Shown: positions 1 to 41,329 of the stretch, piece by piece
How positions within the stretch are numbered: the first letter of the stretch is position 1
Layout of the letters: each line of letters begins with the position of its first letter
Assembly (NCBI GenBank): GCA_020430845.1
Contig: JAGQJA010000013.1
Location: 185 to 43,260, forward strand
Source: Myxococcales bacterium
GTDB lineage: Bacteria; Myxococcota_A; Polyangia; Polyangiales; Polyangiaceae
Reading direction: 5' to 3'
DNA: 43,076 nucleotides
Position numbers and translations under genes: made by a program
Notes under the pieces: generated by a model
Databases searched by the model: none
The model's input: the letters and a program-made list of their open reading frames with translations, nothing else
What the model was told of the DNA's origin: nothing

Positions 1-117
1 CGGCGCGTCGGCCTTGGGAGCGTCGGCCTTGGCCGCCTCACCGTTGGCCGACGGAGGCGGCGCGGAGGGAGGCGCGCCCGACGACGCGGGCGCCTCGCTG
101 CCTTGCTCGGTCGACAT
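1..117 (-). CDS. N-terminus of an unknown protein, cut by the window edge
   Basis: Only the first 39 codons are present. The ATG at 117 overlaps the TGA of the upstream permease gene (TGATG), so the two genes are translationally coupled. The visible residues are low complexity (Ser, Ala, Pro, Gly) and include two copies of the pentapeptide KADAP, encoded by a 15-bp direct repeat. No domain is visible. Coupling to an ABC-2 permease makes another part of the same export system plausible (inference), but nothing in these 39 residues proves it. Confidence 0.7.
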   Translation of the reverse strand, partial: MSTEQGSEAPASSGAPPSAPPPSANGEAAKADAPKADAP

Positions 118-956
118 CAGACGTCCCTCCGCTGGAAGAGGTACGAGCCGAGCCCGAGGTACACCGCCGACATCGCGAAGCACGCCGCCATGCCCGTCAT
201 CGCCTTGGGCAGCTGCGGGTGCACGAGGTACGAGTCGTAGTAGTTGGGGTACGCGTACATCAGGAAGTCCCAGTGGGCGACGTTCCCGATGATCCACAGC
301 AGCCAAAGCGAGAAGAACGCCCCGAACGTGGCGAGCAGCGCGACGATCGGCGACTTGAAGAACGAGCTCACGAGCGTGGAGATGGCGCACCACGCGGCGC
401 TGATCGGCAGCGTGACGAGCCAGAAGCGCAAGCCCCACGTCAGCGCGACGCCCGCGGGCGCCTCGTTGCGCACCACGCACACGATCCAGATGATCGCGTG
501 CATCGTCAGCGTCATCGCGCTCACCGTGGCCCAGAGCCCGCCGAACTTGCCGATGAAGTAGCTGGGCCGGCGCGTGCGGAGCGTCCAGTAGCGCACCGAC
601 TTGTGCTGCATGTCGGACGAGATGGAGTCGAAGCCCATCAGCGAGATGATCATCGGCGTGAGCCACACGGTGAGCAGCAACACCGCGATGAGCACCTCGG
701 GCGCGTCGGCCAGGTGCTTGCCCGTGATCGGATCGCCGAACGCTTGTGTGGCCGCCTCTTCGCGGAGGGCGCGGATGGCCTCGGCGGGCGCGTCGCCCAA
801 GCGCTCTCGCTTGAGCTGCTGCGCCTTGACGAGGAGGAACGTCGCCCCCGTCCCGCCGAGCAGCGAGAGGAGAAGGAGGGCCAACCCCTTCGCGCTGCGG
901 AAGCTCTTTTGCAGCTCGCGCTGCACCACGAAGCGAATTTCGGAAGCGGGGCTCAC
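117..956 (-). CDS. ABC-2 type transporter permease
   Basis: A 279-residue integral membrane protein with about six hydrophobic segments: one near the N-terminus, then a soluble loop of about 60 residues, then five in the C-terminal two thirds. This is the arrangement of ABC-2/NosY-type permeases, which form the membrane channel of an ATP-driven exporter. The loop followed by LTVWLTPMIISLMGFDSIS and a Lys/Arg-rich stretch is typical of the family. I chose the GTG at 956. A TTG at 992 is possible, but it adds a short Arg-rich leader, and neither has a clear ribosome binding site. The ATPase partner is not visible and probably lies beyond the left edge. The substrate is unknown. Confidence 0.8.
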   Translation of the reverse strand: MSPASEIRFVVQRELQKSFRSAKGLALLLLSLLGGTGATFLLVKAQQLKRERLGDAPAEAIRALREEAATQAFGDPITGKHLADAPEVLIAVLLLTVWLTPMIISLMGFDSISSDMQHKSVRYWTLRTRRPSYFIGKFGGLWATVSAMTLTMHAIIWIVCVVRNEAPAGVALTWGLRFWLVTLPISAAWCAISTLVSSFFKSPIVALLATFGAFFSLWLLWIIGNVAHWDFLMYAYPNYYDSYLVHPQLPKAMTGMAACFAMSAVYLGLGSYLFQRRDV

Positions 957-1032
957 GGCGGGAGACCGTAGCAAGAGGCGGGCACCGCGCAAAGTCGCCT
1001 GGGACGACCTTGCGCGGTTCTACGGTGAGTTG

Positions 1033-3432: not shown

Positions 3433-3752
3433 GGGGCCTCCTCCGCGCGAGCGTGGGCGGGAATCTGGCATTCGATGCAGGAAGATCAACGAAGGAATTC
3501 TGAGCATGTAAACTACCGATCGGTCGGCCATGCTAGTGATTTGATATTGCTTCGATTTCTCCCTACGTCTCTAACGCGTTGCAAAAAGGCTCGACCCCCT
3601 TCTGAAAAGGGCGTAAGCCACATTCCGCAGCCAGCGACGGCCCCTGCAGCACGGAGCCGCCGAGCGTGGTGAGGCGTTTCGCAGCCGTCGCACCACACTT
3701 TCGAAGCGCCAAGGCACATGCCGCGGCCAGCGCCTCCCGGGGCGCGAACGAT
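3433..3752. other. Intergenic region upstream of the metallopeptidase gene
   Basis: About 320 bp with no convincing gene. Its first ~170 bp are distinctly AT-richer than the surroundings, as expected for the promoter of the leftward peptidase gene. This part contains the perfect 10-bp palindrome ACCGATCGGT (3515-3524), nested within an AGCATG/CATGCT inverted repeat (3503-3534). The rest, up to the SRP RNA gene, shows no clear motif beyond what an ffs promoter would need. Confidence 0.5.
3503..3534. promoter_or_regulatory. Nested palindromes, candidate operator of the metallopeptidase gene
   Basis: AGCATG at 3503-3508 is mirrored by CATGCT at 3529-3534, and between them lies the perfect palindrome ACCGATCGGT (3515-3524). 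The centres differ by one base. The site is 71-102 bp upstream of the peptidase start codon, in the AT-richer promoter region. Short ACCGNNCGGT palindromes are often bound by dimeric repressors such as TetR-family proteins. No regulator gene is adjacent, so the role is inferred only. Confidence 0.3.
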
Positions 3753-23548: not shown

Positions 23549-24991
23549 ATGCGCGTGGGGCAAGCGATGGCGTGGACGGTGTGCCTCGTTTGTCTTGCGA
23601 TGCTGGTCGCGTGCGCCGACACCAAGCCCCGCGTGGTCGTGCAGTCGTCCATGGAGATCCGGCACTACCGCCTGCCCAACGGGCTCGAAGTGATCCTCCA
23701 TCCGGACCCTTCGTTTCGCAACGTCGTGGTGAACGTGCGCTACGACACGGGCTCGCGGGAGGATCCCCGCGGGCAGGAGGGGCTCGCACACTTGGTGGAG
23801 CACCTCACGTTCCGACGCGTGCTCGGGCCCCCGAAGAGCCCCTCCACCTCGCCGGTCGACGACGCGGGACTGGATGCGGCGGCAGAGGAGCAGGCGTCGC
23901 GCGCGACGCCGCGCGCAGAGACCCTCGGGACCCTCGAGAACGAAATCAGCAGCAATTACAACGCGTTCACGTCTCTCGACGCGACGGAGTACCACATGGT
24001 CGTCGCCCCCGACGACCTGCCCATGGCGCTGTGGCTCGAGGCCCAGCGCATGCGTGCTCCGCTCGCCGGGCTCACAGAGGAGCAATTCGACACGGAGCGC
24101 TCCGTGGTCCGCAACGAGACGCGGCAACGAGACGAGAACGCACCGTACGGCAACGTGGGGGCGACGCTCGTACGCGCGGCGTTTCCCGATGGGCACCCGT
24201 ACCACACCGCCTTCGTGTCGGCCGAGCGAGAGCTCGAGGGCGCGACGCTCGCATCGGCGACCGCGTTCACCCGAGAGCACTACCGCGCGGCGAATGCGAC
24301 GCTCGTCGTGGGCGGCCGCTTCGACGTCGGCGAGGCGGCTCGCCTCGTGCTCGGGACCCTCGGCGCGCTCCCGTCGACGCCGCCGCGCCCGATCGTGGAG
24401 CACGCGCTGCGACCGATCGAGGGTGGCGTCGAGCTCGTGATGGAGGCCGGCGTCGACAGCGCCATGTACGCAAAGGCCTGGCTCGTGCCCCCCGCGGGGC
24501 ACGCAGGGCACCTCGAGGCCCACCTGCTCGCGCGACTGCTCGAGGGCCACGTGTTCGTCGCAGGCCGAGAGGGAGAGCTTGCCCGCGTCCGCGCAGGGGT
24601 ATGGAGCGGGCGACTCGGCGCGCTCTTGATCATCTCTGTCGAGCTCCGAGCGGGCCTCCAGCCCTCGGTCGGGCGTGCCCGCGTGATCGAGGGCATCAAC
24701 ACGCTGCTCGACGCCGACGAGCCGCCGTCGACGTGGGGCGCGATCAAGAGCGGCGTGATCGCGGAGCACGCGTTCGACATGGAGCACCTCGACGAACGCG
24801 CGACCCGCTTCCAGGACGACGTCACGATCTTCGGTGAGCCCGACGTGTTCCAGCCGCTGCTCCATGCGTTCACGCGGGTGCGCTACGTCGACGTCCTCGC
24901 GAGCGCGCACGCGCTCTTGCGTCGGCGTCACGGCGTGGGGCTGTACGTATACCCGGTCGCGGGCGCGCCTCGCGGTGGGCGGGCTCGATGA
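23549..24991 (+). CDS. M16B zinc peptidase lipoprotein, catalytic subunit
   Basis: A 480-residue lipoprotein (AMLVAC lipobox). It keeps the inverted zinc motif HLVEH at residues 81-85 and the downstream Glu (TERSVVRNE), followed by NYNAFTSLDATEYH, the hallmark of active M16 peptidases. A spacer of about 30 residues between HLVEH and that motif is longer than usual. The C-terminal half lacks the Arg/Tyr substrate pair (RVRAGVWSG instead of RxxxGxxY). Family members work as dimers of one zinc-bearing and one Arg/Tyr-bearing half, so this is the zinc half. Its stop overlaps the start of the partner gene (ATGA). Confidence 0.93.
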   Translation: MRVGQAMAWTVCLVCLAMLVACADTKPRVVVQSSMEIRHYRLPNGLEVILHPDPSFRNVVVNVRYDTGSREDPRGQEGLAHLVEHLTFRRVLGPPKSPSTSPVDDAGLDAAAEEQASRATPRAETLGTLENEISSNYNAFTSLDATEYHMVVAPDDLPMALWLEAQRMRAPLAGLTEEQFDTERSVVRNETRQRDENAPYGNVGATLVRAAFPDGHPYHTAFVSAERELEGATLASATAFTREHYRAANATLVVGGRFDVGEAARLVLGTLGALPSTPPRPIVEHALRPIEGGVELVMEAGVDSAMYAKAWLVPPAGHAGHLEAHLLARLLEGHVFVAGREGELARVRAGVWSGRLGALLIISVELRAGLQPSVGRARVIEGINTLLDADEPPSTWGAIKSGVIAEHAFDMEHLDERATRFQDDVTIFGEPDVFQPLLHAFTRVRYVDVLASAHALLRRRHGVGLYVYPVAGAPRGGRAR

Positions 24992-26466
24992 CGGCTCCGC
25001 TTCGCGCCGTCGTCGTCGCGCTCTGCTGCCTCTTCGGCGCAGGGGCGTGCGCCCGAGGCAACGAGCCGCAGCTCGCTGCGGTCCTCCGGGACCGCCGAGA
25101 CCGCGCGGACGTGCACGTCGCCGGCGCCTCCCACCCCACCGAGCTCGGCCGGCCGGCTCGCCGCGCGTTCGCGATTTCGCCCCCACGGTTCGTCGTGCCG
25201 AGCGTGACCAGACTGGCGAGCGGCGTCACGGTGGTCCTCGCGCCGCTCCACGACTTTCCCACGGTCAGCGCGAGCTTCGTCCTCGACCGCGGGCGCTGCT
25301 CGGGTGGCGTCGCCGCCGACCTCCACGCGCTCGCGCTCGGCGGTGATCCCGAAGACGAAGCGCGGACCAACCACCGGTACCTCTACGACATCGCGGCCCC
25401 CCTTCACGTCGCCGTCCACGCCGACATGACCGTCGCGCACGTCCACGCGCTCTCGCTCCTCGCTGCGCCAGCCATCCGCACGGTTGGCCCGTTCTTCCTC
25501 CGGCCGAGGCCTTCCAAGACGGATCTCGAAGGCGCGCGCAAGTGGAGCGAGCGTATCTCGAGCGTCGAGTCGACCCGGTTCGAGGGCCGACCTTTCCGCG
25601 TCGGGGCTCGGATCCTCTTCGGGGAGACCGGCTACGGGACGTCGTTCGGCGCCCCCACGACGGTCGAGCTCGCGCAGACGTCGGACGCAGACGTCGCGGC
25701 CTACCGAGAGGCGGCGCTGTCGCCCGAGCACACCACCGTGATCGTGGTCGGAGACTTCGAGCCGCACACCATCCTGCGCACGCTCGCCGACGCGACGGCG
25801 AACGGCGACCGCAGCAAGGGTTGGCGTCCCCCCACCTGCATCGGCGATGCGCACGCCGGTCCGCTGCCCACCGAGGTCGTCGTCGTCGATCAACCCGGCG
25901 CGCGCCAGGCGCGCATCTCGGTCCTCGCACGGGGCGTCCACGCAGGACACCCCGACGCCGCCGCGCTCGACGTGCTCGCGGCGAGCATGGGGCGCGCGCT
26001 CACGAGCCGACTGTCGCTCGAGATTCGTGAGAAGGCGGGCTGGTCGTACGGCATCGACATGAGCGCGCACGCGCTCCGGCACGCGGGGCTCGTGAGCGTC
26101 TCTGGCGATGTCGAGCACAGCCGCGCGACCGAGGCGCTCACCGCGATCCTTCGAGAGCTCGCCCGCGTGGGGAGCGAACCTCCCCGCGACGACGAGCTGG
26201 CGCGCGCGAAAGAGCGGGCCGCCGCAGTGCCCACGACGCACGCCCAGATCGCGGCGCAGCTCGCGCACGCAAGCGGTGTGGGCCAGGGCTTCGACTACCC
26301 CGAAAAGATGCACCGCGCGATCATGACCGTGACCTCCGACGACGTCGCGCGCGTCGCCGCGACCTATCTGACGCGCGACAAGCTCGTGCTCGTCGTCGAA
26401 GGCGACGCGACCACGCTGGTGCCACGGCTCGAAGCTGCGCAGTTCGAGACCAAGATCGGGCGCTGA
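24988..26466 (+). CDS. M16B peptidase lipoprotein, non-catalytic partner with Arg/Tyr pair
   Basis: A 492-residue lipoprotein (AGAC lipobox) with M16 fold features but no HxxEH; the matching place reads DLHALALGGDPED. It has the substrate-binding motif SLEIREKAGWSYGI in its C-terminal half (Arg-xxx-Gly-xx-Tyr type), which the upstream gene lacks. The two proteins should form one heterodimeric peptidase chamber at the outer membrane, facing the periplasm. Overlap of four bases with the first gene gives equal expression. Substrates are unknown; M16B pairs usually degrade short peptides. It is convergent with the next gene, 25 bp away. Confidence 0.93.
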   Translation: MTAPLRAVVVALCCLFGAGACARGNEPQLAAVLRDRRDRADVHVAGASHPTELGRPARRAFAISPPRFVVPSVTRLASGVTVVLAPLHDFPTVSASFVLDRGRCSGGVAADLHALALGGDPEDEARTNHRYLYDIAAPLHVAVHADMTVAHVHALSLLAAPAIRTVGPFFLRPRPSKTDLEGARKWSERISSVESTRFEGRPFRVGARILFGETGYGTSFGAPTTVELAQTSDADVAAYREAALSPEHTTVIVVGDFEPHTILRTLADATANGDRSKGWRPPTCIGDAHAGPLPTEVVVVDQPGARQARISVLARGVHAGHPDAAALDVLAASMGRALTSRLSLEIREKAGWSYGIDMSAHALRHAGLVSVSGDVEHSRATEALTAILRELARVGSEPPRDDELARAKERAAAVPTTHAQIAAQLAHASGVGQGFDYPEKMHRAIMTVTSDDVARVAATYLTRDKLVLVVEGDATTLVPRLEAAQFETKIGR

Positions 26467-30789: not shown

Positions 30790-32358
30790 TCAGGGCGCGT
30801 CTTGGAAGCGCAGGAGCGCGGTCCACTCGGGGACCATGTTGTCGTCGGTGACGATGCGGGCGCCCTTGGTGCGCGCGAGCACGCTGTCGCGCGACTCGAG
30901 GCCGTGCCCCACGGGCGGCTCGTGGATGGAGTCGGCGTACGAGACGAGGTCGTCGTAGAACGCCTGGCCCTCGGGCGTGGAGCGGTCGATCGCCGGCGTG
31001 CCGTCGAGCGAGTAGTCGGCGAGCAGCTTGCGCCAGCGCTCCTTGTCGAACGAGAACGGCGCGTCGCTCGCCGCCATGAAGTTGTAGACGCGCATCGCGT
31101 GCGGGAACGTCTCGGCGGCCGTGCGCTGGACGTCGTCGGACGACGTGGTGTTGAAGAAGAAGAGCCCGCCGGGCGACAGGTGCTCGCGCACGAGGTGCAT
31201 GAACTCCTGCGAGAGCAGGTTGGTGCTGTGCGCGCGCCAGTGCCACGTGGTGTTCATGACGACGACGTCGAACTTCTCGGTGGGGTGGCGGTGCAACCAC
31301 CTGCGGCCGTCGTCGATGTGGATGCGGACCTTGGGGTCGGTCAGCACGCTCTTGACCTCGTCGTGGCCGCCGATGAGCTTGAGGTACCCGGGGTTGATCT
31401 CGACGATGTCGAACTGCTCGAGCCCCGGCATGTGGCTCAGCACCTTGGCCCACGAGCCCGACGCGAGCCCGATCATGAGCATGCGCTTGGGCGCCGGGTG
31501 CATGGCGCCGATGCCGTAGGCGCGCAGGATGCCGTTCCGGTCGTAGCGGATCGACGTGTTGAACCGGCCGTCGTACGCGCCGCCGCCGTACACCGTGCCG
31601 TCTTGGGTGACGGTGATGACGCCGCTCTTGGTCTCGATGATCTCGGCGAACTTTGTGTCGTCTTGGAGCTTCTTCTTGAAGAGCAAGCGCTCGTAGATGC
31701 GATCGTACGCGGCCGGCGTGCCGAGCATGATCACCCCAGCCGTGCCGGCGACGCTCGCGAGCGCGATGCCGCGACGCGCGCGGCCCAGATCGCTGAGCGC
31801 CAACAAGAGCGCCACGAGCCCGAGGCCGAGGAGCGCGAGGAAGGCGCCCGCGCGCTGGATCGACCAAGCGTCGAGGACGACGAAGCCGGTGACGAGGCTG
31901 CCCGCGGCCGAGCCGACGATATTTGCAAGATACACGTACGAGAGACGCGAGCCCGCGCGCTCGTCGGCCGGGATGCCGAAGTGACTGACGAGCGGCAGGA
32001 TGGCCCCGAGCATCGCCGCGGCCACCGCGACCGCGATGAGCGCAGGCGGCCAGTCCCACCGCTTGGCGCTCATGCCGAAGACGGGGACGACGAGCCACCC
32101 GAGCACGTTGGCCACGAGCGCGAACCACGCGATGCGCTGGAGCTGGCGCGCGTCACCCGCCTTGGCGCCCTCGCGACACATGTGACCCGCGATGCGCGAG
32201 CCGACGGCGATGCCGAACAGGTACGCGGCGAGCAAGAGCCCGAACGCGCCCGGGAGCCCCCAGCTGGCGAACGAGATGACGCGGTACCAGAGGATCTCGT
32301 ACGAGAGCGAGATGAAGCCGCTCGCGGCGGCGATGAGGAGCGTGAGCGCGAAGATCAT
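30790..32358 (-). CDS. Membrane-anchored spermidine-synthase-like methyltransferase-fold protein
   Basis: A 522-residue protein with about seven membrane spans in its first 240 residues (GFISLSYEILWYRVISFASW starts the family pattern), then a spermidine-synthase-like Rossmann domain. The SAM-binding strand reads LMIGLASGSWAKVL and the acidic end is FDIVEINPGYL. The catalytic-loop position, where true spermidine synthases have an Asp (D-x-x-D-P), reads VVMNTTWHWRAHS, so polyamine aminopropyl transfer is unlikely. The fused membrane/spermidine-synthase family has no settled function. The gene overlaps the end of the next upstream membrane gene by 4 bp (ATGA). Confidence 0.85.
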   Translation of the reverse strand: MIFALTLLIAAASGFISLSYEILWYRVISFASWGLPGAFGLLLAAYLFGIAVGSRIAGHMCREGAKAGDARQLQRIAWFALVANVLGWLVVPVFGMSAKRWDWPPALIAVAVAAAMLGAILPLVSHFGIPADERAGSRLSYVYLANIVGSAAGSLVTGFVVLDAWSIQRAGAFLALLGLGLVALLLALSDLGRARRGIALASVAGTAGVIMLGTPAAYDRIYERLLFKKKLQDDTKFAEIIETKSGVITVTQDGTVYGGGAYDGRFNTSIRYDRNGILRAYGIGAMHPAPKRMLMIGLASGSWAKVLSHMPGLEQFDIVEINPGYLKLIGGHDEVKSVLTDPKVRIHIDDGRRWLHRHPTEKFDVVVMNTTWHWRAHSTNLLSQEFMHLVREHLSPGGLFFFNTTSSDDVQRTAAETFPHAMRVYNFMAASDAPFSFDKERWRKLLADYSLDGTPAIDRSTPEGQAFYDDLVSYADSIHEPPVGHGLESRDSVLARTKGARIVTDDNMVPEWTALLRFQDAP

Positions 32359-33056
32359 GCGGCTTCTCCCGACGAAGAGGCGCTCGCGGGGGCGGCGTCG
32401 GACGCGGCCCCCTCGGTGGCGCCGGCGCGCAGCTGCTCGCCCGAGACGCGCGTCTCTCCCTCGCGGAGGGAGCGGCGATGCGCGAGGTAGCTCATGCCCG
32501 CGACGAGGAAGTTGAGGCCCGCGGCGACCCGGACCGAGCCGGACTGCCCGGCATGCGCGAGGATGCCGAGCACGGCGGCCGCGGACGCGAACGCCGAGCC
32601 GAGCGTGTTGACGAAGTACAGGGTGCCGACCGTTCGGCCCACGTTCTTCGACGAGCGCACCAGGTGCGCGACGAGCAGCGGCAACGTGCTGCCCATGAGC
32701 AGCGTGGGCAGGAGCACGAGCAAGAACGTGATCACGAAGGTCCCGCCGGCGCTCATCCCGAGCGTCGCGTTGCCCACGGCGTGGAAGACCGCGAGCGAGA
32801 CCATGCCGAAGACGCCGATGCCCAGCTCGACCATCGAGAAGAGCAGGAGCACGGGCCGCGACGGCGCGCGCGACACGGCGCCCCCCGCGAGGCTGCCGAG
32901 CCCGAGCCCGAGCATGAAGGCGGTGACCACCATCGTGACGCTCTCGACGTTGATCCCGTAGATGGCGAAGAGCGCCCGCTGCCAGACCACCTGATAGAGG
33001 AGGGCCGCGAAGCCACTCGTGAGAAACGCCGAATAAATCCAGCCCCGCGTCGCCAT
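32355..33056 (-). CDS. Six-span membrane protein, stand-alone half of the spermidine-synthase-like family
   Basis: A 233-residue protein with six membrane spans. Its start, FAALLYQVVWQRALFAIYG, matches the first span of fused MFS/spermidine-synthase proteins and is similar to the start of the coupled downstream gene (GFISLSYEILWYRV). It has no enzymatic domain, only an Ala/Ser-rich tail. In many bacteria both membrane halves and the Rossmann domain are one protein; here they are two genes overlapping by ATGA, suggesting a two-subunit version. Function unknown. Its start at 33056 has no strong ribosome binding site. Confidence 0.82.
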   Translation of the reverse strand: MATRGWIYSAFLTSGFAALLYQVVWQRALFAIYGINVESVTMVVTAFMLGLGLGSLAGGAVSRAPSRPVLLLFSMVELGIGVFGMVSLAVFHAVGNATLGMSAGGTFVITFLLVLLPTLLMGSTLPLLVAHLVRSSKNVGRTVGTLYFVNTLGSAFASAAAVLGILAHAGQSGSVRVAAGLNFLVAGMSYLAHRRSLREGETRVSGEQLRAGATEGAASDAAPASASSSGEAA

Positions 33057-33176: not shown

Positions 33177-35240
33177 ATGGTTTCCGGCATCTTGGGCCCC
33201 CTTCGCTCCGCCGCATCTGCGCGCTCGTTCGTCGTCGCCTTGGCCTTCGCGCTGGCCGGCGCGGGCGGCTGCTCGTCGACCTCGTCTCCTTCGCCCGCCC
33301 CCGCGGTGTCGTCGATGTTCGACGTGGCGTCGCCGCTCGGCGCCGAGGCGTTCTTCGACCTCCCGTTCCCGTCCGACGCGCGGCTCAACGCAGAGGGCGG
33401 CCCCGACGTCGCTGCGTTCCCCGACCAGGGCGTGGAGATCCTCGTCGGCCTCAAACGCGGCGCGGCGGCGCGCAAGGGCGTGCCCGTGGTGGCGAGCGCC
33501 TACTTTCGTTTCACGGGCGCGCTCGCCCCGCGCGACGCAGACACGCTCGTCGAAGGCGGCGACGCCGCGCCCATCCTCTTGATCGACGTCGACCCGTCGT
33601 CGCCCGACAAGGGCAAGTCCTACCCCGTCGTCGCCTCGACCCTCGCGCCCGACCCGTACGTCCCGTCGGGCCTGCTCGGCGTCGCGGCCCACCCGGGCAT
33701 CGTGCTCGAGCCGCACCGCAAGTACGCGTTCGTCGTACGGCGGAACGTGGGGGCAGAGGGCGGCGCGCCCGTCGAGCCGGCCCCCGCCTTCGCAGCGCTC
33801 GCGCGCGGAGAGACCCCACAGGGCTCGCGCGGCGCCGAGCTCGCGGCGCTCTACGCGCCGCTGTGGCCGGTGCTCGACGCGAAGGGCGTCGCGCGGACCG
33901 ACGTCACGACGGCCACGGTCTTCACCACGGGCGACGTCGTGAGCGACAACGCCGCGCTCTCGGAGAAAGTGCGTGCACAATACACGCCTTCGATCACGGG
34001 CTTCGCCCTCGAGGCCGACCCGACCGGCGCCCTCCCCGAGGTGTGCCACGTGCGCGCGACGATCACCCTGCCCCAGTTCCAGAAGGGCACGCCTCCGTTC
34101 GACACCGACGGGCTCTTCGAGCTGGGCGCCGACGGAGCGCCGATCAAACAGCGCGACGAGGTCGTGCCCGTGTCGATCACCGTGCCGCGGACGCCCATGC
34201 CCGCGGGTGGCTACCCGCTGGTCGTGTACTTCCACGGCTCCGGCGGCGTGTCTCGCGAGGCGGTCGACGGCGGCGACAAGTCGACGGCCGAGGACAACGG
34301 CAGGTGGCCCTCGACCACGCTCGCCCGTCACGGCTTCGCGGTCGCGGCGTCTGCGCTGCCCGCGAGCCCCGAGCGCGTACCGGGCGCCGGCGCGTTCGAC
34401 TACCTCAACCTCGACAACCCCATCGCCATGCGCGACACGTTTCGCCAAGGCATCATCGAGCAGCGCATCTTCATCGAGGCGCTCGGCCGCGTGAAGATCC
34501 CGACTGCGGCCCTCGCGGGGTGCTCGGGCCCGTCGCTGCCGCAGGGCGAGACCGAGTATCGCTTCTCGATGGACCCGCTCAGCGTGCAGGGCCAGTCGAT
34601 GGGCGGCATGTACGCGCACATGATGGGCGCGGTCGAGCCGCGCATCCGGGCCCTCGTGCCCACGGGCGGCGGCGGCTACTGGATGTACTTCATCCTCAAG
34701 ACGACCAAGGTGCCGGGCGCCGGCGGGCTGCTGGCGCTGCTGCTCAAGACGCCCGAGAAGCTCGACCACCTGCACCCGACGATGCAGATCGGCGAGATGG
34801 CGCTCGAGCCGATCGACCCCATCGTGAGCGTGCCTCGCCTCGCGCACGCACCACTGCCGGGCCACCCCACGCGCTCGATGTACGTGCCCGTGGGCAAGGC
34901 CGACTCGTACTTTCCGCCCGCCGTCTTCGACGCCATCGCGCTGGCGTACGGGCACCCGCGCGTGGGCGACGAGGTGTGGCCGTCGATGAGCGCCGCGCAG
35001 AGGCTCGTGGGCGTGAGCGCCGCGGCGAGCTACCCGGTGCGCGAGAACATGAAGGCCGCCGGCGGCACGTACACGAGCGCCGTCGTGCAGTACGCGCCCA
35101 CGGGCGCGTGGGACGGCCACCAGATCTACCGGCGCCTCGACGAGGTCATCTACCAGTACGGATGCTTCCACCGGTCGTTCCGCAAGGGCGTGCCCGTCAT
35201 CGCGGCGCCGGCCCCCCTCGGCTCGCCTTGCCCCGAGTGA
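33177..35240 (+). CDS. Alpha/beta-hydrolase lipoprotein
   Basis: A 687-residue lipoprotein (GAGGC lipobox). A beta-rich N-terminal part of about 320 residues precedes an alpha/beta-hydrolase domain: PLVVYFHGSGGVSREA (oxyanion region), the nucleophile elbow VQGQSMGGMYAHM (Ser near residue 473) and a late DGHQIY that may supply the His. Such enzymes cut esters or lipids outside the cell. The ATG at 33177 gives a compact signal peptide; the ATG at 33132 would add 15 residues. The first part starts with FDLPFPSDARL, a motif frequent in large secreted myxobacterial hydrolases. The substrate is unknown. Confidence 0.85.
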   Translation: MVSGILGPLRSAASARSFVVALAFALAGAGGCSSTSSPSPAPAVSSMFDVASPLGAEAFFDLPFPSDARLNAEGGPDVAAFPDQGVEILVGLKRGAAARKGVPVVASAYFRFTGALAPRDADTLVEGGDAAPILLIDVDPSSPDKGKSYPVVASTLAPDPYVPSGLLGVAAHPGIVLEPHRKYAFVVRRNVGAEGGAPVEPAPAFAALARGETPQGSRGAELAALYAPLWPVLDAKGVARTDVTTATVFTTGDVVSDNAALSEKVRAQYTPSITGFALEADPTGALPEVCHVRATITLPQFQKGTPPFDTDGLFELGADGAPIKQRDEVVPVSITVPRTPMPAGGYPLVVYFHGSGGVSREAVDGGDKSTAEDNGRWPSTTLARHGFAVAASALPASPERVPGAGAFDYLNLDNPIAMRDTFRQGIIEQRIFIEALGRVKIPTAALAGCSGPSLPQGETEYRFSMDPLSVQGQSMGGMYAHMMGAVEPRIRALVPTGGGGYWMYFILKTTKVPGAGGLLALLLKTPEKLDHLHPTMQIGEMALEPIDPIVSVPRLAHAPLPGHPTRSMYVPVGKADSYFPPAVFDAIALAYGHPRVGDEVWPSMSAAQRLVGVSAAASYPVRENMKAAGGTYTSAVVQYAPTGAWDGHQIYRRLDEVIYQYGCFHRSFRKGVPVIAAPAPLGSPCPE

Positions 35241-35294: not shown

Positions 35295-36740
35295 ATGTGG
35301 AGCCTCGTCGTACGCGCGTTCGTCTTGTCTGCGCTCGCGATCCTCGCGCTCGGGTGCGGGGCGTCGCCACACCGTGAGCCCGAGGCGCCCGCGAACGCAC
35401 GCCGGCACTACGACGGCGTCGACTGGGCCGCCGCGGGCGACGAGACGGTGCGCGTCCTGCGCGAGTACCTCCAGGTCGACACCATCAACCCTCCCGGCAA
35501 CGAGACGCGCGGCGCCGAGCTCATGGGCAAGGTGCTCGCCAAGGAGGGCATCCCCTACGAGATCGTCGAGTACGCGCCGGGCCGCGGCAACCTCATCGCG
35601 CGACTGAAGGGCTCGGGCCGCGAGCGGCCGCTGTGCCTCGTCTCGCACATCGACGTCGTGACGGCCGAGGCCGACAAGTGGCCCAAGGGCAAGGGGCCGC
35701 TGTCGGGCGCCCTCGACGACAAGGGCTACATCTGGGGGCGCGGCGCGCTCGACATGAAGGGCCTCGGCGCGCTCGAGCTGATGACGATGGTGTTGCTCAA
35801 GCGCGCGCACGTGCCGCTCAAGCGAGACGTCGTGCTCGTGGCGGTCGCGGCCGAAGAGACCGACAGCCGCGGCATCCAGTTCGTCATCGAGAACCACTGG
35901 GACAAGCTCGGCTGCTCGCACTCGGTCAACGAAGGCGGGCTCGGCATCAAGGACCTGCTCGTCGAGGGCCAGACCGTCTACACGATCTCGGTCGCCGAGA
36001 AGGGCGTGCTCTGGCTCAAGATGACGGCCCACGGCGAGGCGGGTCACGGCTCGACGCCCGTGCCGGGGCGCGCGCCCGAGCGCCTGCTGCGCGCGATCGC
36101 CAAGCTCGAGGGGCGCGACGATCCGCCGGTCGTGCACCCGTCGCTCTACGAGCTGGCCTCGCGCATCGGACGCGACGTCGGCGGCTTCAAGGGCTTCGTG
36201 CTCACGCGGCGGTCGCTCGTGAACATGTTCGTCGTCGACAAGCTCATGGAGAGCCCGCCGGCCAAGGCCACGCTCTTCAACACGGTGAACGTGACGGGCT
36301 TCGAGGGGCGCAAGGAGCCCAACGTCATCCCCAGCGAGGTGAGCGCGATCCTCGACTGTCGCGTGCTCCCCGGCACGCGGCCCATCGACCTGCTCGTCGA
36401 GCTGCGCGACATCGTCGGCGACGAGAACGTGTCGTTCGAGCTGCTCGACCTCATGGCGGCCAACGAGAGCACGTGGGACGACCCGTTCTTCCGCGCGCTC
36501 GCGCGAAACGCCGTCGACGGGCGCGACCACGTGGTGGCGGGCCCCGCCCTCTCTCCCGGGTACACCGACTCGCTCTACCTGCGCCTCAAGGGCGTGCGCG
36601 CGTACGGGTTCGTCCCCTTCGAGGTCACGCAAGAAGAGATGCGCGGCTTCCACGGGCGCGACGAGCGCGTCAGCGTCGACAACGTCAAGCGCGGCGTGCG
36701 CGCGCTCTACCGCGCCGTCTTGGACGTGTCGGCCGAGTGA
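35295..36740 (+). CDS. M20-family metallopeptidase lipoprotein
   Basis: A 481-residue lipoprotein (LALGCGAS lipobox) of the M20/M25/M40 family. It has the two-zinc ligand set: SHIDVV, GRGALDMKG, AEETDSRG, a SVNEGG substrate loop and a late FHGRDERVS. The insert domain carries a lid dimerisation part (about residues 245-370). Most M20 enzymes are cytoplasmic; this one is exported and membrane-attached, so it should trim peptides or acyl-amino acids in the periplasm. Its stop overlaps the GTG start of an Omp85 gene (GTGA), so the two are made in equal amounts. Confidence 0.93.
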   Translation: MWSLVVRAFVLSALAILALGCGASPHREPEAPANARRHYDGVDWAAAGDETVRVLREYLQVDTINPPGNETRGAELMGKVLAKEGIPYEIVEYAPGRGNLIARLKGSGRERPLCLVSHIDVVTAEADKWPKGKGPLSGALDDKGYIWGRGALDMKGLGALELMTMVLLKRAHVPLKRDVVLVAVAAEETDSRGIQFVIENHWDKLGCSHSVNEGGLGIKDLLVEGQTVYTISVAEKGVLWLKMTAHGEAGHGSTPVPGRAPERLLRAIAKLEGRDDPPVVHPSLYELASRIGRDVGGFKGFVLTRRSLVNMFVVDKLMESPPAKATLFNTVNVTGFEGRKEPNVIPSEVSAILDCRVLPGTRPIDLLVELRDIVGDENVSFELLDLMAANESTWDDPFFRALARNAVDGRDHVVAGPALSPGYTDSLYLRLKGVRAYGFVPFEVTQEEMRGFHGRDERVSVDNVKRGVRALYRAVLDVSAE

Positions 36741-38095
36741 AGGCCCGCGCCGCGCTCGCTGCGTGCCTCGTCGCCTCGTGGTGGAGCGGGCTCGCGCGCG
36801 CCGACCAAGAAGAGCACAAGGCGCCCGACGTCTTCGTCGACGGCGAGCGCACGTGCAAGGTCGACGAGGCCGACCTCCCCGCGAAGGTCGACGAGATCCG
36901 CATCGAGGGCCTCGTGCGCACCAAGGAGTACGTCGTCCGCCGCGAGCTCTTCTTCTCCGAGGGCGACGTGGTCACGCGCGCGATGTTCGACCTCGCGCTC
37001 ACGCGGCTGTGGAACACGACCATCTTCGCCCACGTCGACGGCGAGATCCTGCGCTCTTGCGACGGCGATCGCGTCATCGCCGTGCTGCGCCTCGAGGACC
37101 GCTGGACGCTCAACCCGCTCTTCAGCTTCGGGTCGGGCGGCAACGCCACGTTCTTCCGCGTCGGAGCCTCGGACAACAACCTGCTGGGGCACTACGTGGA
37201 GGCGCAGGCCCAGTACGAGAACTTCGACGGCTTCCACGGCGGTCAGGCCATCTTTCGCGACCCGCGCCTGTTCGGCCGTCGGCTCGAGCTGCTCGTCCAG
37301 ACCGACAGGCTCGTGCGTCCGCGACGGGGCTTCAGCGATCAGCGCACGCAGGCCATCGTCGAGATCGCCAAGCTCGAGCTCTCGGATCAGCTGCGGTTCG
37401 GTGCGCGCGTGAGCGCCTTCGCCAATCGGTTCCTGCCGCCGCTCGACTCGCCCGCGTATTTTCCGGCCGGGACCGAGACGGTCGCCGTCGAGCCCACGCT
37501 ACGCGTCGGGCGCGTCGACACCGTGCGCATCCGCCAGCGCGGCACGAGCCTCGAGCTCAGACCCTCCGTGGGCCGGGTCTTCGGCAGCGACGTCTCGACG
37601 GAGTACGCGGCGTTCACCGCGCAGCTGCTCGCGTTCGTGATGAGCGGCGAGCGGTGGAACTTCGCCGCGCGCGCGCGTGTGTCGGGCACCACGCGCGTGC
37701 CCGAGCACCTGCAGCTCTACGCGGGGGGCCTGGACCTCTTGCGGGGCTTCCCCGACAATTACGTGCGTACGCAAGCATTCTGGCTCACCAACGCCGAGGT
37801 GCGGTTCACGGCGTTCGACTCGACGTGGATCGCGCTCGTGCCCGTCGCCTTCGCCGACGCGGTCGCGGCGCGCGGCCCCAAGGGTGACGTGGGCGGCGCC
37901 CTCGCGGTGGGCGGCGGCCTCCGCATCCTCGTGCCCAAGTTCGTGGGCACGGGCCTGCGCGTCGACTTCGCCGTCCCCGTCACTGGCAACGTGCGCGAGG
38001 TAGGAGAGGGTGAGATGGCCCGCTTCGGTCCCACGACACCGACGCCCGAGACCGGGAGCGTCCAGCCCAGCTTCGGCGTGTATCAGTTCTTCTGA
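36737..38095 (+). CDS. Short Omp85-family outer-membrane protein
   Basis: A 452-residue protein with a signal peptide (WWSGLARA). One or two POTRA-like repeats follow (about residues 45-130, IRIEGLVRTKEYVVRRELFF and TRLWNTTIFAHVDGEI), then a 16-strand-type barrel ending with FGVYQFF. The LRGFPDNYVRTQAF motif matches the conserved VRGF/Y loop of Omp85 proteins. It is much shorter than BamA, which has five POTRAs, and resembles the single-POTRA members that insert or export selected substrates. GTG 36737 is set by the overlap with the M20 gene. Its cargo is unknown, but the M20 enzyme is the likely partner (inference). Confidence 0.88.
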   Translation: MKARAALAACLVASWWSGLARADQEEHKAPDVFVDGERTCKVDEADLPAKVDEIRIEGLVRTKEYVVRRELFFSEGDVVTRAMFDLALTRLWNTTIFAHVDGEILRSCDGDRVIAVLRLEDRWTLNPLFSFGSGGNATFFRVGASDNNLLGHYVEAQAQYENFDGFHGGQAIFRDPRLFGRRLELLVQTDRLVRPRRGFSDQRTQAIVEIAKLELSDQLRFGARVSAFANRFLPPLDSPAYFPAGTETVAVEPTLRVGRVDTVRIRQRGTSLELRPSVGRVFGSDVSTEYAAFTAQLLAFVMSGERWNFAARARVSGTTRVPEHLQLYAGGLDLLRGFPDNYVRTQAFWLTNAEVRFTAFDSTWIALVPVAFADAVAARGPKGDVGGALAVGGGLRILVPKFVGTGLRVDFAVPVTGNVREVGEGEMARFGPTTPTPETGSVQPSFGVYQFF

Positions 38096-38361: not shown

Positions 38362-39549
38362 ATGTCTCGAGCAGTGGGCGCCGTCGCGGCGCTCGTCATG
38401 GTGGGTTGTGCCAGCGAAGCGCCGTCGCTGTCGTCGTACGGGTACCTGCGCGATCCCGCGCCGTCGCGCGAGCCGGGAGCGCCCGAGGGCGAGGAGGCGC
38501 CGCCCGGGCCGCGCCTTCAGGACGGCTCGCAGCCGTCGGGCGTTCAGTCGATGTTCTTCGAGAACTCGGTGCGGCGCGACGCGACCGCGGCCGAGGCGAG
38601 CCGCGTGGCGAACGTGGGCGGGTGCACGGCGTTCTTCCTCGAGAACACGGCGGGCAAGGTGTACCTGGCGTCGGCGCGTCACTGCTTCCAGTTCGCGATC
38701 ACCAACTGGTGCACGACCAACGGGCAGGTGACCGACAACTCGGGCAACAAGGGCAAGTGCACCAGGGTCGTCGCGGCCGACACGAGCCGCGACATCGCGG
38801 TGTTCGAGGCCGACATCAAGCACGCCTCGTCGGGAGACAGCACGCTGCGGCTGTCGGCGTACGTGCCCTCGATGAACTCGGCGCTCACGATGGTCGGCTA
38901 CCCCGCCGACAACGATCCGGCGACGGGCCGCAACGGCAAGCTGACCACGACCGAGAAGTGCTGGGTGCTCTCGGGGTCGGTGCAGAGCCCGTACGCGAAC
39001 CAGGACAAGAACACGCTCGATCTCTCGGCGATGCACAACTGCACGACGTACGGCGGCAACAGCGGCGGGCCCATGTACCGCGAAGGAACGCGCGACGCCG
39101 TGGGGCTCCCGTTCACCTACGTGCCCGACGACTACAAACGACGCTCGCCGACCGACACGAGCACGGCGGCGTACATGGCGCTCACGAGCGACTTCGTCTC
39201 CGCGCATCAGGCCGAGCTGACGGCGGCCGGGATCGTCATCGCGAGCACGCAGGCGGGAGGCACCGTGGGAGGCGGCGCGGGCACCGGAGCGGGCACGGGC
39301 GCAGGCACCGGTGGGACCACGGGCACCGGCGCGGGCGGGACCACGGGCACGGGCACCGGCGGGACGACCGGCACGGGAACGGCGGCGGCGGCGTGCACGT
39401 GCGGCGTCGACGGGACGGGCTACTACTGCGGCATCTTCCGCGGCACGGCGGTCGTCGCGTACAGCTACCGCACGAACGCCGACCCGACGTGCGCGGGCGC
39501 GTGCGCGAGCCCCGAATACGCGGCGGTCGCGGCGCAGCAGTGCCGGTGA
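38362..39549 (+). CDS. Trypsin-like serine protease lipoprotein with Gly/Thr linker and Cys-rich tail
   Basis: A 395-residue lipoprotein (VGCASEA lipobox). It has a chymotrypsin-fold catalytic triad: LASARHCFQ (His near 106), SRDIAVFEAD (Asp near 144) and GGNSGGPMY (Ser near 234), as in bacterial S1 proteases. A Gly/Thr/Ala-rich linker follows (about residues 300-340), then a 45-residue C-terminal module with six Cys (TCGVDGTGYYCGIF, CAGACASPEY) that looks like a small disulfide-bonded binding domain. A very strong ribosome binding site (GGAGGAGG) sits before the ATG at 38362. Probably an extracellular or outer-membrane protease; the target is unknown. Confidence 0.92.
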   Translation: MSRAVGAVAALVMVGCASEAPSLSSYGYLRDPAPSREPGAPEGEEAPPGPRLQDGSQPSGVQSMFFENSVRRDATAAEASRVANVGGCTAFFLENTAGKVYLASARHCFQFAITNWCTTNGQVTDNSGNKGKCTRVVAADTSRDIAVFEADIKHASSGDSTLRLSAYVPSMNSALTMVGYPADNDPATGRNGKLTTTEKCWVLSGSVQSPYANQDKNTLDLSAMHNCTTYGGNSGGPMYREGTRDAVGLPFTYVPDDYKRRSPTDTSTAAYMALTSDFVSAHQAELTAAGIVIASTQAGGTVGGGAGTGAGTGAGTGGTTGTGAGGTTGTGTGGTTGTGTAAAACTCGVDGTGYYCGIFRGTAVVAYSYRTNADPTCAGACASPEYAAVAAQQCR

Positions 39550-39588: not shown

Positions 39589-40464
39589 CTACTTGGTGTC
39601 GGGGACGGGCGCGCCGGTCTTGCAGATCTTGGACGTGCGCGCGTCGAAGTCGGACAGGTTGCCGAGCACGATGCTGATGTAGAGGTCGGACTCGCTGGTG
39701 AGCGTGGTGAGCGAGAACTCGCGCCACAGCCCGTAGAGGTGGCGGGTGCGCCCCGGCGACACCTCCCAGTACACCTCGATCTGGTAGTCCTGGTTGAACG
39801 AGGCCGGCTCGCCGCTGATGAAGTTGGCCGGCTCGTTGAGGTAGGTGCGCGAGAGCAGCACGGGACCGCCCGTGGGGCTCGCGTCGGGCAGCCGCCACGC
39901 GCCGCCGGTGAGGTTGCTCAGGTAGGTGCGGCCGAGCGCCGTCGCCTTGTAGTCGGTGCGCCACGTGAGCTGGGGCGCGGCGCGCGAGAGGAAGTCCGCC
40001 GAGCTCGACGAGTACGTGCGCGTGTACTCGTCGTAGAGGTCTGGGTAGAGCTCGGACTGGTTCTTGGCGATGACGTACTGCTCGACCTTGTCGAGCGGGC
40101 ACTCGAGCTCGGTGACGATGAGCATGCCCTGTGCGGGCGCGGGATCCTTGTTGGGCAGGACGAGGTCGGTCTCGGCCTTGGTGAGATCGCCGATCTTGAC
40201 CTGCATGGGCACGGTGGACGTGCGCTGGATGACGCCCTCGATGCCGGCCATCTCCTTCTTGACGTCGTCGGCCGAGGTCTTGGAGTAGGCCGTCCAGAAC
40301 GCGCGCGCCGCGACCGTCATCTCGCTCGGCGCGTCGATGGCCTGATCGGTGGAGAGATCGTCGAGCGTGCCGAAGTCGCAGCCCGCGAGCGGGAGCGCGA
40401 GACCTGCGACGAACGCGGCGGAAACGAGGCGCGAGAAGACGGACATGAGCGACGCTTGGCTCAT
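39589..40464 (-). CDS. Lipoprotein of unknown function
   Basis: A 291-residue lipoprotein (LPLAGCDFG lipobox). About 270 residues of mixed alpha/beta sequence follow the lipid anchor, with one late Cys (KICKTG) and the repeated phrase ALGRTYLSNLTGG. No named domain is visible. The start is uncertain: ATG 40464 or 40446; neither has a clear ribosome binding site. It is divergent from the barrel gene at 40499, with only 34 bp between the starts, so both promoters must overlap or lie inside the opposite gene. It is convergent with the trypsin-like gene. Confidence 0.75.
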   Translation of the reverse strand: MSQASLMSVFSRLVSAAFVAGLALPLAGCDFGTLDDLSTDQAIDAPSEMTVAARAFWTAYSKTSADDVKKEMAGIEGVIQRTSTVPMQVKIGDLTKAETDLVLPNKDPAPAQGMLIVTELECPLDKVEQYVIAKNQSELYPDLYDEYTRTYSSSSADFLSRAAPQLTWRTDYKATALGRTYLSNLTGGAWRLPDASPTGGPVLLSRTYLNEPANFISGEPASFNQDYQIEVYWEVSPGRTRHLYGLWREFSLTTLTSESDLYISIVLGNLSDFDARTSKICKTGAPVPDTK

Positions 40465-40498: not shown

Positions 40499-41329
40499 AT
40501 GCCCCGCAGGCGCACGGCCTCCTCGCTCGCTCTGGCGCTCGCCGCGCTGCTCGCTTCTCACGCCATTTCGAAGAGCGCGCGAGCCCAAGACGCCCAGCCC
40601 GAGCCAGCCCCGAGCGCAGACGCAAACGCCCCCGCAGACGCAAACGCAAACGCAAACGCAGGCGCGAACGCAAACGCAGGCGCGAACGCAGACGCAAACG
40701 CAAACGCAAACGCAGGCGCAAACGCAGACTCACCCGCACCCGCACCCGCACCCGCACCCGCCCCCGCGGCGCCCGACACCCCGACCGCAACCGGCCCCGC
40801 CCCCTCGCGTCCCTGGCGCTTCACCGCGATGCTCGGCATCGTGAGCCTGCCGCGCCTCGTGAGCGTCGAGCCGCTCGTCTCGCGCTCGCGACCGAGCGAT
40901 CCGCGCTGGCCGGTGTGGGCCGCGGGGCTGTCGTTCGAGTACCTGCCGCCCTCGATCGCGAACTTCGGAGACAAGACGACGGTGTCGTGGATGCAGATCG
41001 GCGCGCAAGGGCGATGGCACCCGTGGCGCTTCGTCTTCGTGGGCGGCGCGATCGGCTATCAGTTCGTGCGGGCCGACTCCGAGAAGTTCCGCGCCGAGGT
41101 CGACTACGTCACCAAGGGCCTCTACCTGGCGCCCAAGGCCGGCGTCGCCCACACATTTGCCAACGGGCTCACGGTGGGCGCAGACCTCGGGGCCACGATC
41201 CCCATCGCCCCCTCGGTCGAGCTCATCAGCGACGGGACCGAAGACTCGAACGCGCGCAAGGTCGCGAAGACGTTCGGCCAGTTCGTCATCCCCCAGCTCA
41301 CGCTGTTTCGTGTGGGGTACACGTACTGA
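40499..41329 (+). CDS. Outer-membrane barrel protein with Ala-Asn/Asp repeat linker
   Basis: A 276-residue exported protein. A signal peptide (SLALALAALLASHA) is followed by the hexamer-repeat region (about residues 40-76, alternating Ala with Asn, Asp or Gly) and a Pro/Ala stretch, then a beta-barrel domain of about 170 residues ending LTLFRVGYTY with a C-terminal aromatic. The barrel resembles small OmpA/OmpW-like barrels of unknown cargo. The repeat is encoded by GCA-xxC hexamers, a different codon style from the rest of the gene. There is no ribosome binding site before the ATG; translation may be leaderless. Confidence 0.82.
   Translation: MPRRRTASSLALALAALLASHAISKSARAQDAQPEPAPSADANAPADANANANAGANANAGANADANANANAGANADSPAPAPAPAPAPAAPDTPTATGPAPSRPWRFTAMLGIVSLPRLVSVEPLVSRSRPSDPRWPVWAAGLSFEYLPPSIANFGDKTTVSWMQIGAQGRWHPWRFVFVGGAIGYQFVRADSEKFRAEVDYVTKGLYLAPKAGVAHTFANGLTVGADLGATIPIAPSVELISDGTEDSNARKVAKTFGQFVIPQLTLFRVGYTY
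40616..40729 (+). repeat. In-frame array of 19 GCA-xxC hexamers in the barrel-protein gene
   Basis: Nineteen consecutive 6-bp units, mostly GCAAAC, GCAGAC and GCAGGC, with two GCGAAC and one GCCCCC. They are read as Ala-Asn, Ala-Asp, Ala-Gly and Ala-Pro pairs. Alanine is written almost only as GCA, while the rest of the gene prefers GCC/GCG. A run of GCACCC/GCCCCC hexamers follows to about 40771, as it does behind the intergenic array at 13374. Confidence 0.9.

What the first reader, a model, noticed from the sequence alone, without database searches (positions are those of the whole stretch)
35295..38095. Exported M20 peptidase translationally coupled to a short Omp85 protein
A GTGA overlap joins a lipoprotein M20 metallopeptidase to an Omp85 barrel that has room for only one or two POTRAs. 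I know of no standard system with this pair. The peptidase could process a peptide or acyl-amino acid before or after the barrel passes it through the outer membrane, giving a two-gene processing-export unit. The alpha/beta-hydrolase lipoprotein 54 bp upstream may belong to it.
Basis: inference. Interest (0 to 1): 0.55.

Follow-up and report, generated by a model that had tools for sequence, protein, structure and literature searches.

The report
START-M20-Omp85 outer-membrane gene trio

Summary
An exported M20 amidohydrolase (35295-36740) overlaps by GTGA a 452-aa Omp85 protein (36737-38095) with one POTRA and a modelled 16-strand barrel. The pairing is conserved: 14 loci in the own clade and family f26 hold both genes complete, adjacent, in the same order. 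It lies within 3 kb of M20 in 41 of 62 genomes with this M20. In f26 the same 13 of 22 genomes carry M20, START and Omp85, 9 in one row; in the own genus the same 3 of 12 do. In 30 of the 48 other M20 genomes a POTRA-less Omp85 is present instead, in 10 on the same contig. The upstream alpha/beta-hydrolase is not core. Best reading: START binds an amphipathic N-acylated substrate, M20 cleaves its amide, Omp85 gives passage across the outer membrane. The unit is well supported; substrate, direction and complex are inferred. Surface display by Omp85 is the main rival.

The parts
35295..36740 (+). Exported M20 amidohydrolase (lipoprotein type), 481 aa
   Evidence: PF01546/PF07687 above cut-off; metal and catalytic positions H118, D153, E187, E188, E213, H453 invariant in 29 aligned relatives; lipid-anchor Cys21 invariant in 5 close orthologues
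36737..36740 (+). GTGA start/stop overlap joining M20 to Omp85
   Evidence: read directly; a 4-nt overlap is also called in L009, L017, L088, L090, L091, L095
36737..38095 (+). Short Omp85 protein, 452 aa: signal peptide, one POTRA, 16-strand barrel
   Evidence: R336-G337 of the loop-6 RGF motif (motif name recalled) invariant in 34 aligned sequences
36893..37099 (+). Single POTRA domain (model residues 53-121)
   Evidence: PF07244; model
37109..38083 (+). 16-strand Omp85 barrel (model residues 125-449)
   Evidence: model; BamA and TamA are the top PDB matches
39589..40464 (-). Third partner: START/SRPBCC-fold lipoprotein, 291 aa, no Pfam family
   Evidence: family conserved beside M20; model pLDDT 89.2 with START matches; Cys29 invariant in 29 aligned members
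33177..35240 (+). Alpha/beta-hydrolase-like lipoprotein; neighbour, not part of the conserved core
   Evidence: orthologue only in L016 (62%); absent from L017, not seen upstream in L009; only a weak TIGR03502 match, E 0.003, far under its cut-off

Best explanation
The overlapping M20 and Omp85 genes belong to a three-protein outer-membrane module whose third member is the START-fold lipoprotein at 39589-40464. Shown: the three genes are conserved together, occur together or not at all in one family and one genus (one f26 genome has an Omp85 alone), and the Omp85 slot is filled by either of two different Omp85 subfamilies. Inferred mechanism: the START lipoprotein holds an amphipathic N-acylated amino acid or peptide (or a lipid carrying one) at the periplasmic face of the outer membrane; M20 hydrolyses the amide bond; the Omp85 barrel lets the substrate or a product cross or enter the outer membrane. 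Which molecule, which direction, and whether the proteins form a complex are not known.
For: Pair and trio conservation: M20-Omp85 adjacent in 14 complete pairs plus one cut by a contig end. START gene within 3 kb of M20 in 41 of 62 loci: 14 upstream on the same strand, 26 divergent, 1 (window) downstream on the opposite strand. In f26 START, M20 and Omp85 stand in one row in 9 of 13 carriers, with -22 and -4 nt overlaps in L088, L091 and L095. All-or-none: f26, M20 and START in the same 13 of 22 genomes, 1-POTRA Omp85 in those 13 plus one; own genus, START in exactly the 3 of 12 genomes that carry the M20 orthologue and the Omp85. Phylum sample of 377: 58 of 62 M20 genomes have START against 10 of 315 without M20; 44 of 62 have a strong hit to one of the two Omp85 types against 5 of 315, and no genome has strong hits to both. 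The POTRA-less Omp85 is directly next to M20 (L096, L099, L121) or to START (L117, L147), and one gene from M20 in L098 and L101; L176 is a weak, truncated case. START fold: Foldseek E 1e-6, Z up to 13.3. M20 nearest to PRK07906, PRK09133, aminoacylase-1 and ArgE/DapE models, none reaching its cut-off, with N343 and R356 invariant; in such enzymes these positions bind the free carboxylate of the substrate (recalled).
Against: No biochemical data. A START fold gives no ligand, and many relatives with this fold are enzymes (the top Z row is an aromatase/cyclase, though rows within 1 Z are tied). 18 of 62 M20 genomes lack a strong hit to either Omp85 type (9 of the 18 have a weaker POTRA-less hit), and 4 of 62 lack a strong START hit (G171 and G259 have weak ones). 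G020 (95% complete) has the M20 orthologue (64%) and no hit for START or either Omp85. Of the 30 M20 genomes with the POTRA-less Omp85, 20 have it on another contig; in f40 it mostly lies in other conserved neighbourhoods. 33 of 43 genomes with a weaker POTRA-less hit, and all 29 with a weaker 1-POTRA hit, lack this M20. Five f26 genomes carry a further close Omp85 copy with no M20 or START beside it (L122-L126). In f40/f32/f34, 20 of 24 M20 do not match the lipobox pattern. In the window the START protein has Asp at +2, an inner-membrane signal in E. coli though not the one found in M. xanthus. Co-occurrence counts are phylogenetically non-independent (the 13 f26 carriers lie in 4 of 10 genera), and thresholds were set after seeing the scores.
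Confidence: 0.42

Rival explanations
1. Surface-display unit: the Omp85 barrel is a dedicated translocator that carries the M20 enzyme and the START lipoprotein to the cell surface or assembles them into the outer membrane, like a two- or three-gene version of type Vd secretion (PlpD), where patatin, POTRA and barrel are one polypeptide.
For: A single POTRA, as in PlpD; lipobox patterns in all 18 M20 of the 1-POTRA clade and an invariant anchor Cys in START; tight overlap of enzyme and barrel genes.
Against: The replacement Omp85 has no POTRA, and in f40/f32/f34 20 of 24 M20 lack the lipobox pattern, so a common translocation signal is not obvious. The window proteins lack Ala at +7, the M. 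xanthus extracellular-matrix lipoprotein signature (read).
Confidence: 0.25
2. Co-regulated envelope catabolism without a physical unit: M20 and START handle acyl amino acids or lipids in the periplasm, and the Omp85 is an accessory assembly factor (BamA-like) whose gene is merely in the same regulon.
For: 18 of 62 M20 genomes have no strong hit to either Omp85 type; Heinz and Lithgow propose that BamA-like proteins with 1-3 POTRAs are assembly factors (passage); POTRA-less barrels on another contig in 20 of 30 M20 genomes.
Against: Overlapping or near-abutting genes in the same order across 14 complete pairs, and two different Omp85 subfamilies linked to the same enzyme and START gene.
Confidence: 0.22
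3. Accidental adjacency of unrelated envelope genes.
For: 4-nt overlaps are common in dense genomes (recalled); G020 keeps M20 without Omp85.
Against: Conserved pair and trio in two families at 38-58% protein identity, all-or-none presence in f26 and in the own genus.
Confidence: 0.04

Closest known systems
Type Vd secretion, PlpD (patatin and POTRA fused to Omp85)
   Same: A hydrolase coupled to an Omp85 barrel with a single POTRA (passages)
   Different: Here the enzyme is a separate protein, of family M20 rather than patatin, and a START-fold lipoprotein is added; translocation of the enzyme is not shown
TamA-TamB (TAM)
   Same: An Omp85 barrel working with a partner linked to lipid transfer (abstract starts only)
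   Different: No TamB-like neighbour noticed; one or no POTRA instead of three; the partners are a START lipoprotein and an M20 enzyme
BamA with its lipoproteins (BAM)
   Same: Omp85 barrel with lipoprotein partners; top sequence and structure matches are BamA
   Different: One POTRA, far below the BamA equivalog cut-off (53.6 against 297 bits); BamB-E are recalled to be of other families
BamA-like, noNterm and Metallo Omp85 subfamilies of Heinz and Lithgow 2014
   Same: The window Omp85 would fit the BamA-like group (1-3 POTRAs) and the replacement barrel the noNterm group by layout; the Metallo group fuses a hydrolase domain (PF00149) to an Omp85 barrel (passages)
   Different: Subfamily membership was not tested here; the passages seen mention no M20 or START partner
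M20 aminoacylases, PM20D1, PRK07906/PRK09133
   Same: Same enzyme family; NCBIfam models PRK07906, PRK09133 and aminoacylase-1 match well, below their cut-offs; kinship to PM20D1 is recalled
   Different: Lipoprotein form genetically tied to START and Omp85; substrate unknown

Membership tests
Peptidase family M20 | M20 catalytic and dimerisation domains above Pfam cut-off | tested here: met
   PF01546 85.8 against 24.6 bits, PF07687 53.7 against 21 bits
Peptidase family M20 | Metal ligands and catalytic Glu conserved | tested here: met
   H118, D153, E187, E188, E213, H453 invariant in 29 aligned relatives; role assignment recalled; alignment to a DapE and to aminoacylase-1 covers part of them
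Peptidase family M20 | Hydrolytic activity on an amide bond | not testable with these tools
   needs enzyme assay
Omp85 superfamily | 16-strand C-terminal barrel | tested here: met
   model with 16 strands, BamA/TamA top in PDB
Omp85 superfamily | Pfam Omp85 domain PF01103 above cut-off | tested here: inconclusive
   23.0 bits against 24 for the window protein; POTRA PF07244, 23.6 against 21.3, is above
BamA | BamA equivalog score and five POTRAs | tested here: not met
   TIGR03303 53.6 against 297 bits; one POTRA; number five recalled
TamA | three POTRA domains | tested here: not met
   one POTRA; three in TamA per passage
Type Vd (PlpD) | enzyme, POTRA and barrel in one polypeptide | tested here: not met
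   stop codon of M20 at 36738-36740, separate N-terminal signals
Type Vd (PlpD) | patatin passenger | tested here: not met
   the enzyme is M20; no patatin among its Pfam matches
Two-partner secretion TpsB | POTRA_2 domain (PF08479) | tested here: not met
   not among the Pfam matches up to E 0.1; the POTRA found is PF07244
START / SRPBCC superfamily | helix-grip fold | tested here: met
   model pLDDT 89.2; Foldseek top hits START proteins, best E 1e-6; Z 13.3 over 145 residues at 2.7 A
START / SRPBCC superfamily | Pfam START or Polyketide_cyc domain by sequence | tested here: not met
   neither among the matches up to E 1 of 29 members
START / SRPBCC superfamily | binds or transfers a lipid | not testable with these tools
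   needs ligand-binding assay
Slam surface-lipoprotein exporters | 14-strand barrel with N-terminal TPR domain (recalled) | tested here: not met
   16 strands and a POTRA in the model

The most novel reading that the evidence does not exclude
A previously undescribed outer-membrane machine: a START lipid-carrier lipoprotein, an amide-cleaving M20 enzyme and an interchangeable POTRA-poor Omp85 barrel that together capture, deacylate and move an acylated amino acid or peptide across the outer membrane. It would be, to my knowledge, the first Omp85 barrel dedicated to a small amphipathic molecule rather than to protein.
Probability: 0.25. Interest if true: 0.85.

Novelty: new variant of a known kind. 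Interest (0 to 1): 0.6.

Why it matters
What Omp85 barrels with one or no POTRA carry or assemble is an open question. A conserved enzyme and a START-fold partner tie two such subfamilies to one substrate-handling task and make the question testable with three gene deletions, one enzyme assay and one ligand pull-down. If the barrel serves a small amphipathic molecule, it would extend the job list of the Omp85 superfamily beyond proteins and bulk phospholipid.

Tried and rejected
Upstream alpha/beta-hydrolase as a fourth member: rejected, orthologue only in L016. Fusion of M20 with Omp85: none seen; the two over-long M20 models were checked by eye: L117 runs on in the same frame into a Pro/Ala/Arg-rich tail of about 260 residues with no Omp85-like match, and the extra N-terminus of L105 lies upstream of a likelier start. 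Sigma-54 regulator next to Omp85 in f28: those Omp85 are a distant subfamily with no M20 hit beside them. Coproporphyrinogen oxidase, HAD phosphatase and Dicty_CTDC-repeat neighbours in f26: set aside as not shared with the own clade. A common hydrolase replacing M20 beside START genes not near M20: none found; neighbours differ from locus to locus, except that L142 and L143 share one. START family in plasmids: no match; M20 in plasmids: 3 hits of 31-34% identity. START profile against PDB sequences: one hit at E 1.6. BLASTP between the two Omp85 types: best E 0.11, but profile comparison 96.5% over 161 columns.

Counting choices: the M20 set of 62 genomes means E at or below about 3e-122; 13 of 75 genomes, with hits at E 1e-99 to 1e-90, were dropped. 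START set of 68 genomes: hits down to about 1e-36 plus one contig-end hit (G336); 18 of 86 dropped. 1-POTRA Omp85: 17 genomes at E up to 4e-73; 29 of 46 dropped. POTRA-less Omp85: 32 genomes at E up to 1.2e-113; 43 of 75 dropped. In one search the M20/Omp85 count used another Omp85 list (32 genomes, 14 shared with M20). Thresholds were chosen after seeing the score gaps. START alignment A3 used 29 of the 30 hits (L120, truncated, left out). The Omp85 tree and A4 left out two short hits (L132 and one of two in L140).
Full report
Observation. The window lies in G000:C5. The M20 gene is 35295-36740 and the Omp85 gene 36737-38095, joined by GTGA. Pfam gives Peptidase_M20 and M20_dimer for the first (plus a weaker M28 match) and one POTRA for the second, with Omp85 PF01103 just under its cut-off. 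The AlphaFold2 model of the Omp85 (34 sequences, pLDDT 87.8, pTM 0.84) shows a signal helix, one POTRA and 16 strands; the PDB matches listed are BamA and TamA. The alpha/beta-hydrolase ends 54 bp upstream.

Is the pair conserved? Among 58 genomes (own included) the Omp85 orthologue appears in G006 and G011 at 67-70% identity, both directly after an M20 orthologue. A MAG titled Myxococcales bacterium (L009) has the pair with a 4-nt overlap. Profiles of the pair searched in 377 genomes of the phylum found it again in another family, f26. In all, 14 loci hold a complete M20 gene followed at -4 to +76 nt by a complete 1-POTRA Omp85 on the same strand: window, L009, L016, L017, L082, L084, L085, L086, L088, L090, L091, L092, L094, L095; L083 is the same but cut by the contig end. 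Of the 18 M20 loci of this clade the other three are L018 (no Omp85 hit in the genome), L087 (Omp85 on another contig) and L102 (M20 at a contig end). Gene starts come from a home-made caller, so spacings are approximate. FastTree trees of M20 and Omp85 both separate the own clade (0.98 and 1.0 local support) from f26 (0.95 and 0.96), and in the M20 tree own clade (with L018) and f26 join with 0.96. The f26 Omp85 clade also holds copies not linked to M20: L127 and L128, the only strong hits of G321 and G126, and L122-L126, further copies.

The missed partner. Clustering the genes of 65 loci (45 of them M20 loci) gave, after M20 and Omp85, one family of 25 members, the next having 7: a lipoprotein of about 270 aa, found in 30 loci by a six-frame search. 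It has no Pfam or NCBIfam assignment (only scattered weak matches among 29 members) and no PDB sequence match better than E 1.6. In the window it is 39589-40464 on the minus strand. In f26 it precedes M20; START, M20 and Omp85 stand in one row in L082, L085, L086, L088, L090, L091, L092, L094 and L095 (9 of 13 carriers; L083 truncated), with a 22-nt overlap to M20 in L088, L091, L092, L094 and L095. In eight f40/f32/f34 loci called it is divergent from M20 with gaps of -8 to 104 nt. In the 377-genome sample it is within 3 kb of M20 in 41 of 62 loci. Its model (29 sequences, pLDDT 89.2, pTM 0.84) is a START/SRPBCC helix-grip fold: Foldseek hits are START-type domains (carotenoid-binding protein, StarD13, MLN64, CERT, StAR) and VIA-align gives Z 13.3 to TcmN, 13.0 to a Xanthomonas START protein and 12.8 to StAR, which count as tied. 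The anchor Cys is invariant in 29 of 29 aligned members.

All-or-none behaviour. In f26 as held (22 genomes) M20 and START occur in the same 13 genomes and the 1-POTRA Omp85 in those 13 plus G122 (Fisher 2e-6 and 3e-5, not corrected for ancestry: the 13 lie in 4 of 10 genera). M20 and Omp85 are adjacent in 10 of these 13; G200 is cut by the contig end, G321 has M20 at a contig end, G126 has them on different contigs. In the window's genus START occurs in exactly 3 of 12 genomes, G000, G006 and G011, the same that carry the M20 orthologue and the Omp85 (of the other 9, 6 have only M20 relatives of 34-40% identity and 3 none at that threshold).

A second Omp85 type. Several M20 loci outside f26 carry a different Omp85 barrel with no POTRA (PF01103 in 4 of 6 members at E up to 0.1; alignment; related to the first type by profile comparison, 96.5%). 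It is next to M20 in L096, L099 and L121, next to START in L117 and L147, and one gene away from M20 in L098 and L101; L176 shows a weak, truncated case beside a START-like gene. Phylum-wide, 32 genomes have a strong hit, 30 of them with the M20, and none with a strong hit to the 1-POTRA type. On the same contig as M20 or START it is in 10 of these 30 (G190, G330, G360, G147, G326, G352, G138, and at about 3 to 8 kb G130, G286, G264); in 20 it is on another contig. Strong hits to either type accompany 44 of 62 M20 genomes against 5 of 315 others (Fisher 4e-37, inflated by shared ancestry). The wider barrel families are not tied to this M20: of the weaker hits, 33 of 43 POTRA-less and 29 of 29 1-POTRA genomes lack it. 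In f40 the unlinked barrel lies in two other conserved neighbourhoods, beside a 600-690-aa protein that looks like a radical-SAM enzyme or beside a 620-640-aa repeat protein (both named by eye).

Mechanism. M20: metal ligands and catalytic Glu are invariant in 29 sequences, as are N343 and R356, which in ArgE/DapE/aminoacylase relatives bind a free carboxylate (roles recalled; partial alignment). The nearest curated models are PRK07906, PRK09133 and aminoacylase-1, none reaching its cut-off. This points to a substrate with a free alpha-carboxylate and an N-acyl group. A START fold points to an amphipathic ligand. An Omp85 barrel points to passage across, or insertion into, the outer membrane. 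The joint reading is capture, deacylation and passage of an acylated amino acid or peptide. Only the genetic unit is shown; ligand, direction and complex are inferred. The main rival is surface display of the enzyme and the START protein by the barrel, as in PlpD. Against it: the POTRA-less version, and 20 of 24 M20 without a lipobox pattern in f40/f32/f34. By the M. xanthus finding (Lys at +2 in 8 of 12 inner-membrane lipoproteins) neither window protein is marked for the inner membrane, but Asp at +2 of the START protein would be so marked in E. coli, so its membrane is uncertain; 3 of 30 START sequences have Lys at +2.

Literature. Seen: passages of Heinz and Lithgow 2014 (PMC4104836) and of the M. 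xanthus lipoprotein study (PMC3222651); search listings and abstract starts for TAM (PMC11014939, PMC12800296), PM20D1 (PMC7145423) and others. No listed title or abstract start describes such a trio in the searches for Omp85 with patatin/POTRA/lipoprotein (14 of 14 listed), Omp85 with M20, peptidase and lipoprotein (9 of 9), Myxococc with Omp85 and surface lipoprotein (none found), two of Omp85, START domain and M20 (12 of 146 listed), and bacterial START domains or START with periplasm (12 of 346; 6 of 6). Nothing more can be said about what is in print.

Noticed in passing
window 30790-33056, minus strand: Two genes overlapping by 4 nt encode membrane/spermidine-synthase-like proteins (PF01564 found in the long reading frame); the pair is conserved in L016 and L017 beside the same M20 locus.
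   Followed up: partly
window 38362-39549, plus strand: Trypsin-like protease (PF13365) with a Gly/Thr-rich linker and Cys-rich tail between Omp85 and the START gene; no relative was found in the other loci clustered.
   Followed up: no
window 40499-41329 and L009:3-563: Small outer-membrane barrel with an Asn/Ala low-complexity N-terminus; its relative (52%) sits 5 bp upstream of M20 in L009, so it may be loosely tied to the locus.
   Followed up: no
window 23600-26466, plus strand: Two neighbouring genes overlapping by 4 nt; the first begins like an M16 peptidase (recalled motif, not searched).
   Followed up: no
L176 (G130:C24) 1-3500: M20 followed by a second START-like protein with a signal peptide (weak PF03364), then a divergent START-family lipoprotein, then a truncated weak match to the POTRA-less Omp85: a possible expanded form of the trio.
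   Followed up: partly
L122-L126: Further copies of the 1-POTRA Omp85 in f26 without M20 or START beside them; L124 has a large c5-cluster gene next to it, a cluster whose L086 member carries Dicty_CTDC repeats.
   Followed up: partly
L163, L165, L166, L169, L171, L173: In f40 the unlinked POTRA-less Omp85 follows a protein of about 600-690 aa (radical-SAM-like by eye) and a 200-230-aa protein in a conserved gene row.
   Followed up: no
L016:2656-3690 and L017:6268-7296, minus strand: ArgZ-like protein (Pfam for L016; 79% identical in L017) upstream of the pair in two own-genus relatives, absent from the window.
   Followed up: no
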